A stretch of 32,371 bases of DNA from Eggerthellaceae bacterium (GTDB lineage Bacteria; Actinomycetota; Coriobacteriia; Coriobacteriales; Eggerthellaceae). The notes below the pieces were generated by a model that saw only the letters and a list, made by a program, of their open reading frames with translations, ran no database searches and was not told the origin of the DNA. A program made the position numbers and the translations under genes. Below, piece after piece: positions 6,044-6,970 of this stretch. Position 1 is the stretch's first letter. Every line of letters starts with the position of its first letter. The stretch covers positions 1-32,371 of the forward strand of contig JAFRJC010000055.1 in the NCBI GenBank assembly GCA_017432445.1. Direction: 5' to 3'.

Positions 6044-6970
6044 CTATCCTTCGCCTTCGGTTTTAAATGATGTGATGGGAGCGGCAACGCCTCCTGTGCC
6101 GATGTATTCGACAAATTCATCAACGCGCATGTCGTCGAGCTTGCGGTAATCGGCATGGAGGGCGCGGGCAAGTCGCCGGGCACGCTGCTCAGCTGTGCGC
6201 TTGCCAGAACCCGAATCGACGAAGTAGATGGGAACGCCCTTCTTCTTGCAGTACTCACCGAAACTGCGGATGACTTTCGACGGCTGCATGATGCGGGAAC
6301 GGTCATAACCGCCGTCCGAGAGCAGCACGACTTCGGCGCTTTCGTCTTGCATGTCGTCAATGATCCGTACGGCCAGACGGAACGCGTCGAACAGGGGCGT
6401 CGAACCCCCGCCCTTCACCGCATCGATGCGCTGTGCCGCCAATTCGGCTGATGAGGTGAACGGCAGAATCAGGTGCGCACGCAACCCTCCGAAGCCGATG
6501 ATTGCCACACGCGTGCGCGTGACATACGCATCGCTGAGCAACGAAACGACACATCCCTTAACCAAGGACAGGCGGCCGGATCCCACCATGGACCCGCTCG
6601 TATCCACGAGAAACACGATGTTGCGCCTTCCGCGCCCCGCGATCTTGCGGTAGCGCATGTGCTCTTCGCGCAGACCCTCTTGAAGGCTTTCGCCGGCGAC
6701 AAGCTGAGCGACGACGCTGCCCACGACATGGATTTCGCCAGAAGCGGGCGTTTGAGTATAGCCGATGCAATGCCCTTTCTGCGCCTTCTTGCCCTTGACG
6801 CCACGGCGTGCCTGGACAGCCCGCTCGACGCGGCTTTGCACCGACTCGATGGGCTTGGCGTGAAACTCAGCCGTCTTGACGTCAGTCAGGGGCAGCGCTC
6901 GACTTTGCGCCGCCCCTAGGGTTTTTTTACTTCGTTCGCCTTTTCTGCAGGCAAGCCTATCGGGACGCAT
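6044..6970 (-). CDS. chlD: vWA (integrin I) part of a ChlD/BchD-type chelatase subunit, probably reached by -1 frameshift
   Basis: The open frame holds a basic linker and then a C-terminal von Willebrand A domain. The MIDAS site reads FLVDTSGSM, with GGSTPL as the threonine loop and VVLLSDGGYD as the third MIDAS segment. The preceding IHVVGSVVAQLVAG and HMRYRKIAGRGRRNI segments are typical of the region joining AAA+ and vWA domains in ChlD. The nominal ATG at 6970 lies 55 bp inside the upstream chlI-like gene and has no Shine-Dalgarno. The frame is -1 relative to that gene, and a slippery site sits at 6922-6928. I infer translation as a fusion: 342 residues from the AAA+ gene, then about 292 from here, giving about 634 residues, close to usual ChlD length. 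Such subunits drive Mg or Co insertion with a large CobN/ChlH subunit, which is not in this window. Confidence 0.85.
   Translation of the reverse strand: MRPDRLACRKGERSKKTLGAAQSRALPLTDVKTAEFHAKPIESVQSRVERAVQARRGVKGKKAQKGHCIGYTQTPASGEIHVVGSVVAQLVAGESLQEGLREEHMRYRKIAGRGRRNIVFLVDTSGSMVGSGRLSLVKGCVVSLLSDAYVTRTRVAIIGFGGLRAHLILPFTSSAELAAQRIDAVKGGGSTPLFDAFRLAVRIIDDMQDESAEVVLLSDGGYDRSRIMQPSKVIRSFGEYCKKKGVPIYFVDSGSGKRTAEQRARRLARALHADYRKLDDMRVDEFVEYIGTGGVAAPITSFKTEGEG
6889..6928 (-). promoter_or_regulatory. Programmed -1 ribosomal frameshift signal between AAA+ and vWA frames
   Basis: On the minus strand, seven A residues (6928-6922) form an in-frame A-AAA-AAA slippery heptamer (codons GTA AAA AAA) two codons before the TAG at 6918-6916. 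Five nucleotides later a stem begins. GGGGCGGCGC (6916-6907) pairs with GCGCTGCCCC (6898-6889) over 10 bp, with one G-U pair and an 8-nt loop. A -1 slip on the heptamer enters precisely the open frame of the vWA domain (ACC CTA GGG...). Heptamer, spacer and stem all fit the standard bacterial -1 signal. Confidence 0.82.

What the first reader, a model, noticed from the sequence alone, without database searches (positions are those of the whole stretch)
6889..6928. Complete -1 programmed frameshift signal joining ChlI-like and ChlD-like frames
The sequence shows an in-frame A-AAA-AAA heptamer, a 5-nt spacer and a 10-bp GC-rich stem-loop at the end of the AAA+ gene. The vWA domain lies in exactly the -1 frame and has no ribosome site. 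Slippage would make a ChlD-length protein of about 634 residues from the same mRNA that yields a ChlI-like subunit of 343. Programmed frameshifting in chlD genes is established for some cobamide producers, so this would be a new instance with an unusually clean signal. The stem overlaps the stop codon, coupling termination to structure.
Basis: partly seen in the sequence, partly recalled or inferred. Interest (0 to 1): 0.85.

Follow-up and report, generated by a model that had tools for sequence, protein, structure and literature searches.

The report
Conserved frameshift makes two chelatase subunits
In this bacterium one gene carries its motor domain and its sensor domain in two different reading frames, and a slippery run of A's plus a hairpin, kept here and in the five relatives examined (the hairpin weaker in one), is predicted to let some ribosomes slip and make a long protein as well as a short one from the same message.

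Summary
On the minus strand, an AAA+ (ChlI-like) ORF ends GTA AAA AAA CCC TAG; a vWA (ChlD-like) ORF lies in the -1 frame; a predicted 12-bp hairpin starts at the stop codon. Five further family genomes carry the gene. All six have the -1 offset, an in-frame A6-A8 run, UAG and a GGGGC(A/G)GC hairpin 5 nt (8 in G036) after the run. The hairpin is more stable than synonymous recoding gives in four of six, marginally in a fifth, not in G102. The vWA frame is under purifying selection. In G031 the -1 frame opens only at the A run, with no start codon in the next 150 nt. A database search found no in-frame fusion of this clade. This matches the published fs-chlD type of programmed -1 frameshifting (three cassettes measured in E. 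coli by others): a new member of a known kind. What differs: no CobN/ChlH large subunit was found in the six genomes, four of six have CbiD of the anaerobic B12 route, and the gene adjoins (2 of 6) or co-occurs with corrinoid-methyltransferase genes. Its partner is therefore probably not a chelatase. Frameshifting itself and the partner are untested.

The parts
6916..7947 (-). 0-frame ORF: ChlI/BchI-like AAA+ ATPase, 343 aa, ending at UAG 6916-6918
   Evidence: NCBIfam TIGR02442 N-terminal half 2.8e-119 and TIGR02030 3.1e-98, both below the curated cut-offs; PDB 1g8p BchI 2e-77
7956..7965 (-). purine-rich ribosome-binding-like string GGAAGAGGGG, 8 nt before ATG 7947
   Evidence: read from sequence
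6922..6928 (-). slippery heptamer A AAA AAA (0 frame: GTA AAA AAA)
   Evidence: A6-A8 run in the same place in 6 of 6 genomes
6917..6921 (-). 5-nt spacer CCCUA between heptamer and GC stem
6887..6918 (-). predicted stimulatory hairpin, up to 12 bp, 8-nt loop, taking in the UAG stop
   Evidence: z -5.9; conserved (90.9% of cells paired over 6 rows); 0 of 1000 synonymous recodings as stable
6916..6918 (-). 0-frame stop codon UAG, 3 nt after the heptamer
   Evidence: UAG in 6 of 6 genomes
6044..6922 (-). -1 frame after the slip: linker and vWA (integrin-I) domain; with the AAA+ part it would give a 634-aa ChlD-like protein
   Evidence: Pfam VWA_2 3e-14; profile hit to BchD 2x31 1.8e-16; dN 0.16, dS 1.35 against G115
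8279..9433 (-). neighbour, same strand, 331 nt upstream: double-cubane-cluster anaerobic reductase; relation to the gene not shown
   Evidence: NF040772 519 bits, cut-off 350

Best explanation
One gene encodes a ChlI-like AAA+ motor in frame 0 and a ChlD-like vWA domain in frame -1, and the A AAA AAA run with its hairpin is predicted to make a minority of ribosomes slip back one base there. Most ribosomes would stop at UAG, giving the 343-aa ChlI-like subunit. Those that slip on AAA AAA would read ACC CTA GGG... and give a 634-aa AAA+-vWA subunit, so both kinds of subunit of an I/D-type AAA+ complex would come from one mRNA in a fixed ratio. Shown: frame layout, conservation of run, stop and stem, selection on the -1 frame, no in-frame fusion of the clade in the searches made. 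Inferred: that the shift happens, its efficiency (10% for a published 7-A chlD cassette in E. coli), and complex formation. Also inferred: because no CobN/ChlH was found in these genomes, the complex probably serves another client, possibly corrinoid-methyltransferase proteins.
For: Six of six distinct genomes have the -1 offset with an A6-A8 run, UAG and hairpin. In G031 the -1 frame is closed by UGA directly before the A run, which pins the shift to the run, and no start codon follows within 150 nt. The vWA frame is under purifying selection (window/G115 dN 0.16, dS 1.35; four pairs, dN/dS 0.12-0.25; dS saturated). The Gly codon in the stem is GGG in all six, the only one of 35 invariant Gly/Ala columns with a single codon (6 of 100 invariant columns of any residue). 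The stem beats synonymous recodings: 0, 2, 3 and 3 of 1000 as stable in four genomes. 58 short vWA clusters at 48-87% identity, no comparably close fusion. The fs genes form one group, SH-aLRT 100. A_AAA_AAA chlD cassette: 10% frameshifting in E. coli (PMC3711429). No other TIGR02442 match above 44 bits in the six genomes. MIDAS-type residues D123, S125, S127, T191, D219 invariant in 22 rows (motif recalled).
Against: No expression or peptide data. In G102 the stem is weak (113 of 1000 synonymous versions as stable) and in G033 marginal (33 of 1000). G036 has only six A's (G AAA AAA), so its P-site re-pairing would be imperfect. I saw no conserved upstream SD-like stimulator in the six-row alignment. 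With six sequences covariation is modest: two pairs changed on both sides, reached by 42 of 500 shuffles (covariation score and paired cells by 8 of 500). The stem also encodes GAA...LP, which limits that signal. Start codons lie 18-30 nt after the shift in G036, G102 and G033. The G031 and G033 vWA frames run off their contigs. Linkage to methyltransferase genes is direct in only 2 of 6.
Confidence: 0.88

Rival explanations
1. Transcriptional slippage: RNA polymerase adds an A at the A run, so part of the mRNA carries the two frames fused; the ribosome need not slip.
For: A runs can do this; G031 has eight A's. PMC3711429 lists An with n > 7 for transcriptional realignment (passage).
Against: Runs here are 6, 7, 7, 7, 7 and 8, short for this. 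A hairpin 5 nt downstream (8 in G036), constrained beyond its coding content in most of the six, fits ribosomal pausing; one search finds no terminator-like site there.
Confidence: 0.07
2. Two separate genes: the vWA ORF is translated from its own start or by coupled re-initiation at the overlap.
For: In the window an ATG lies 48 nt before the first shifted codon; G033 (GTG, +18), G102 (GTG, +21; another at +93 with GGAG before it) and G036 (TTG, +30) have start codons soon after it. Database proteins hold the vWA part alone, from various internal starts.
Against: No start is shared: G031 has none in the first 150 nt and is closed upstream, G115 has the first at +108 nt, inside conserved protein. 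The residues GAA..LP, before or across those starts, are conserved.
Confidence: 0.04
3. Pseudogene or assembly error: a one-base indel in a homopolymer broke an ordinary chlD.
For: A homopolymer is a typical error site; all relatives but one (G102) are multi-contig genomes.
Against: The same offset at the same place in six genomes, one a single-contig, 99% complete genome, with dN/dS of 0.12-0.25 in the four pairs computed.
Confidence: 0.01

Closest known systems
fs-chlD / magnesium chelatase fs-genes (Antonov et al. 2013, PMC3711429; Kuznetsov et al. 2022, PMC9227772)
   Same: AAA+ part, A-rich slippery run, downstream RNA structure, vWA part in the -1 frame, short and long product from one mRNA; A_AAA_AAA among the cassettes tested.
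   Different: Coriobacter-/Eggerthell- do not occur in the main text of either paper (supplements not seen). Here the hairpin takes in the stop codon (window), no large subunit was found, and corrinoid-methyltransferase genes are near in some relatives.
fs-chlD without CobN/ChlH in Spirochaeta thermophila and Brevefilum fermentans (PMC9227772, 'stage 1')
   Same: Frameshifted chlD in anaerobes with no large subunit; function stated as unclear.
   Different: Those are said to lack the B12 pathway; here CbiD of the anaerobic route is present in 4 of 6 genomes.
dnaX -1 frameshift (E. coli)
   Same: A-rich heptamer with downstream hairpin gives a short and a long subunit of one complex.
   Different: In dnaX the shifted product is the short one, and an SD-like stimulator lies upstream (PMC3711429 passages); none was evident here.
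Mg-chelatase BchI/BchD and cobaltochelatase CobS/CobT
   Same: Domain architecture; best PDB sequence matches 1g8p (AAA+) and 2x31 (vWA).
   Different: Those have separate I and D genes and a large subunit (recalled and PMC9227772); no large subunit found here.

Membership tests
fs-chlD (programmed -1 frameshift chlD) | ChlI-like AAA+ ORF followed by vWA ORF in the -1 frame, overlapping | tested here: met
   offset -1 in 6 of 6 genomes
fs-chlD (programmed -1 frameshift chlD) | A-rich slippery site in frame inside the overlap | tested here: met
   A AAA AAA in 5 of 6, G AAA AAA in G036
fs-chlD (programmed -1 frameshift chlD) | downstream stimulatory RNA structure | tested here: met
   hairpin predicted in 6 of 6; clear in 4, marginal in G033, not distinguishable from the synonymous null in G102; stimulation itself untested
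fs-chlD (programmed -1 frameshift chlD) | frameshift product made | not testable with these tools
   needs reporter or proteomics
fs-chlD (programmed -1 frameshift chlD) | groups with published fs-chlD sequences in a tree | not tested
   published sequences were not at hand; only that the six form one group apart from 40 single-frame ChlD rows
Cobaltochelatase CobNST / Mg-chelatase ChlIDH | large subunit CobN/ChlH (PF02514) in the genome | tested here: not met
   0 of 6 fs genomes, incl. G102 (99% complete, one contig; four of the six are 70-76% complete); same search rings in 5 of 14 control genomes
Cobaltochelatase CobNST / Mg-chelatase ChlIDH | I-type AAA+ and D-type vWA subunits | tested here: met
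   below the TIGR02442 cut-off (779 bits), each frame being scored apart

The most novel reading that the evidence does not exclude
In this Eggerthellaceae lineage the frameshift-made I/D motor has lost the chelatase altogether and now remodels or reactivates corrinoid-dependent methyltransferase proteins: a 'chelatase motor without a chelatase', with subunit ratio set by ribosomal slippage. It sits at the end of a corrinoid activase - MtaA-like - DUF1638 - MtbA-like gene run in one relative and directly after an MtbA-like gene in another, and co-occurs with these genes across the family.
Probability: 0.25. Interest if true: 0.75.

Novelty: new member of a known kind. Interest (0 to 1): 0.48.

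Why it matters
It adds a well-conserved -1 signal, overlapping the stop codon in the window, to the bacterial genes predicted to use frameshifting to set subunit ratios, in a lineage where database proteins hold the vWA half as a separate short protein. PMC9227772 states that the function of ChlI and ChlD proteins without a large subunit remained unexplored; the methyltransferase neighbourhood seen in some relatives gives a concrete partner to test.

Tried and rejected
Rejected as leading explanations: pseudogene/assembly error, separate initiation, transcriptional slippage (see rivals). A riboswitch near the gene was looked for in 8 sources; the only Rfam match at gathering threshold was an SRP RNA in L035. 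A scan of viral contigs for the signal gave 4 stretches, none encoding a relative by tblastn at E <= 1e-3. A first tree (56 rows) held rows that were unrelated long frames; it was rebuilt with 46 homologous rows and only that is used. A first fold of G036 (fourth entry) was at wrong coordinates and is replaced. The literature search for a magnesium chelatase-corrinoid methyltransferase link (55 papers, 15 listings seen) and one cluster paper (PMC10418091, term search in its text) gave no such link in what I saw. 'Ribosomal frameshifting'+'Eggerthella' gave 0 papers, 'magnesium chelatase'+'Eggerthellaceae' 1, on another subject by its title and abstract start, 'fs-chlD' 1, the 2022 paper. The 2020 Mol Biol Evol paper on fs-chlD did not come up as a held paper and was not read, and supplements were not readable, so an earlier listing of this case there cannot be excluded.

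Full report
What is there. On the minus strand of the window an ORF with an ATG at 7947, preceded by the purine-rich string GGAAGAGGGG, encodes a 343-aa ChlI-like AAA+ ATPase. It ends ...GTA AAA AAA CCC TAG. The A run (6922-6928) is one of two A7 runs in the window, both strands counted. A second ORF (6044-6970) in the -1 frame encodes a vWA domain. Slipping back one base on AAA AAA gives AAA AAA ACC CTA GGG and a 634-aa AAA+-vWA protein, the architecture of ChlD and of NCBIfam TIGR02442 (641 positions). A predicted hairpin of up to 12 bp (6887-6918) starts in the UAG stop: -25.6 kcal/mol, z -5.9.

Orthologues. A search of 138 genomes of the family with the vWA protein gave 32 with a match at E <= 0.001. 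Six have a close relative (E <= 1e-83: the window genome G000, G115, G036, G031, G102, G033); the other 26 have only distant matches at E >= 8e-10. In all six the vWA frame is -1 relative to the AAA+ frame. The heptamers are A AAA AAA in five and G AAA AAA in G036. The A runs (window, G115, G036, G031, G102, G033) are 7, 7, 6, 8, 7 and 7 long and the stop is UAG in all, 0 to 6 nt after AAA AAA. G031 is the sharpest case: its -1 frame is closed by a UGA immediately before the A run, so the shift must happen on the run, and no ATG/GTG/TTG follows in the next 150 nt. In G115 the first start codon is 108 nt downstream. G036, G102 and G033 have start codons at +30 (TTG), +21 (GTG) and +18 (GTG), without an SD-like string; G102 has another at +93 with GGAG before it. 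So re-initiation could operate in some members but cannot explain the family. The G031 and G033 vWA frames run off their contigs.

Selection. Both frames evolve as protein-coding: dN and dS for window against G115 are 0.16 and 1.35 in the vWA part and 0.18 and 1.39 in the AAA+ part; differences by codon position in the vWA part are 51, 32 and 139 of 278 codons (dS is saturated). The stem is constrained beyond the protein: of 35 invariant Gly/Ala columns in the six vWA sequences, only the Gly in the 5' arm (GGG) uses one codon throughout (6 of 100 invariant columns of any residue do). Against 1000 synonymous recodings of the same 12 codons the stem is matched or beaten in 0 (window), 2 (G115), 3 (G036), 3 (G031), 33 (G033) and 113 (G102) cases. 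On the six-row alignment 90.9% of pair cells are standard pairs, against 38-53% when slid by 1 to 3 columns. Two pairs are changed on both sides, which 42 of 500 column shuffles reach; the covariation score and the paired percentage are each reached by 8 of 500. So covariation is modest. G102 has a weaker stem (z -1.4).

Wider sequence space. A second search with the conceptual fusion, scoring the vWA part among proteins of 349-1110 aa, gave 54 rows, the best 33% identical over 79% of the part; none exceeds 34% over 60% or more, shorter matches reach 45% over 30% (only the 7999 candidates sharing most words were scored). So no in-frame fusion of this clade turned up. In the class (396 genomes drawn) 50 genomes match at E <= 1e-20; apart from G000 and G102 none is better than 2.6e-30. 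Of those 51 other places, 46 lie in open frames of 645-752 aa, that is single-frame ChlD, and five in shorter ones (346-599 aa) that I did not follow. In a tree of 46 homologous rows the six fs genes are one group with SH-aLRT 100, apart from the 40 single-frame rows.

Mechanism. The anatomy is that of canonical bacterial -1 programmed ribosomal frameshifting. Published work measured it in this gene type: 23 magnesium-chelatase fs-genes from six genera, three cassettes tested in E. coli, 63% (11 A), 40% (9 A) and 10% (A_AAA_AAA) (PMC3711429, section 24 and passages read). The 2022 follow-up names the fs-chlD type and its AT-rich slippery sites with downstream structure (PMC9227772, parts 1-3 of 4 read). 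I therefore expect of the order of 10% shifting here; this is inference.

What it serves. PF02514 (CobN/ChlH) is found in 0 of 6 genomes with the gene (11 genomes searched; own genome also), including the single-contig G102; four of the six are only 70-76% complete. The next best TIGR02442 match in the six is 44 bits, so as far as these assemblies go the fs gene is the only I/D source. CbiD of the anaerobic B12 route is present in 4 of 6 (the two without are 70% and 76% complete). As that route uses a single-protein cobalt chelatase (recalled; not searched for), the I/D motor should not be needed for it. Context: in G115 the gene follows, on one strand, an AcsV/RamA-like corrinoid activase, an MtaA-like protein (both below their NCBIfam cut-offs), DUF1638, an MtbA-like protein (NF004889, 424 bits, cut-off 244) and a 236-aa ORF. 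In G031 it follows an MtbA-like gene (418 bits). In G036 a gene of this superfamily (below cut-off) lies about 1.6 kb downstream beyond an antiporter gene. The same activase-MtaA-DUF1638-MtbA run is elsewhere in G102 and G036. Across 138 family genomes DUF1638 is in 5 of 6 fs genomes and 7 of 132 others; NF004889 over its cut-off in 4 of 6 and 2 of 132. Fisher p is about 1e-5 for each, 6e-4 when collapsed to genera. These tests were chosen after seeing the G115 and G031 neighbourhoods and are not corrected for phylogeny. Against the link: the window genome has no NF004889 match at E <= 1e-40 (though 7 URO-D superfamily matches; and a DUF1638 gene), no methyltransferase of this kind was seen among the window ORFs scanned or in the 14 of 18 ORFs scanned in the 18 kb round the G102 gene, and the G033 contig is too short to tell. 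The window gene has a double-cubane reductase 331 nt upstream. The link is a lead, not a demonstration.

Identity of the organism. Named relatives are an Eggerthellaceae bacterium from goat ileum (L003, same contig as G115, which is in the window's genus) and an uncultured 'Coriobacteriaceae' MAG (L002, same contig as G036). The window genome has 3.17 Mb in 188 contigs, 96.4% complete, 4.8% contaminated.

Verdict. Observation confirmed; programmed -1 frameshift supported by comparative evidence, not measured; kind already known; new, as far as the papers I could read go, are the taxon, the stop-overlapping stem and the corrinoid-linked, chelatase-less setting.

Noticed in passing
L035:10853-16796 (G115), L077:6020-10512 (G102), L078:2220-7534 (G036): Recurrent gene run: AcsV/RamA-like corrinoid activase, MtaA-like, DUF1638, MtbA-like methyltransferase, with an MtbC-like corrinoid protein in G036; it co-occurs with the frameshift gene.
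   Followed up: partly
L005:6908-8537 (Paenibacillus rubinfantis): A ChlD-type gene whose AAA+ part (239 aa) and vWA part (372 aa) lie in different overlapping frames, next to a 1257-aa ORF of CobN size (not identified); may be another recoded or split gene.
   Followed up: no
window 18349-20799: Beta-glucosidase-type ORF (816 aa) whose profile matches run in swapped order (BglX profile 384-758 at residues 20-410; another family's profile 59-271 at 587-805), as in a circularly permuted enzyme.
   Followed up: no
window 3781-5055: One 424-aa ORF joins a DNA-deoxyinosine glycosylase (TIGR04274) to an NAD(P)H-hydrate epimerase domain (TIGR00197), both above cut-off.
   Followed up: no
L035:8640-8735: Small bacterial SRP RNA directly downstream of the frameshift gene in G115.
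   Followed up: no
window 8279-9433: Double-cubane-cluster anaerobic reductase upstream of the frameshift gene on the same strand; not among the neighbours scanned in the relatives.
   Followed up: partly
class search: G204, G239, G252, G215: Five distant ChlD-type vWA matches lie in open frames shorter than a full ChlD (346-599 aa); could be split, recoded or cut-off genes.
   Followed up: no
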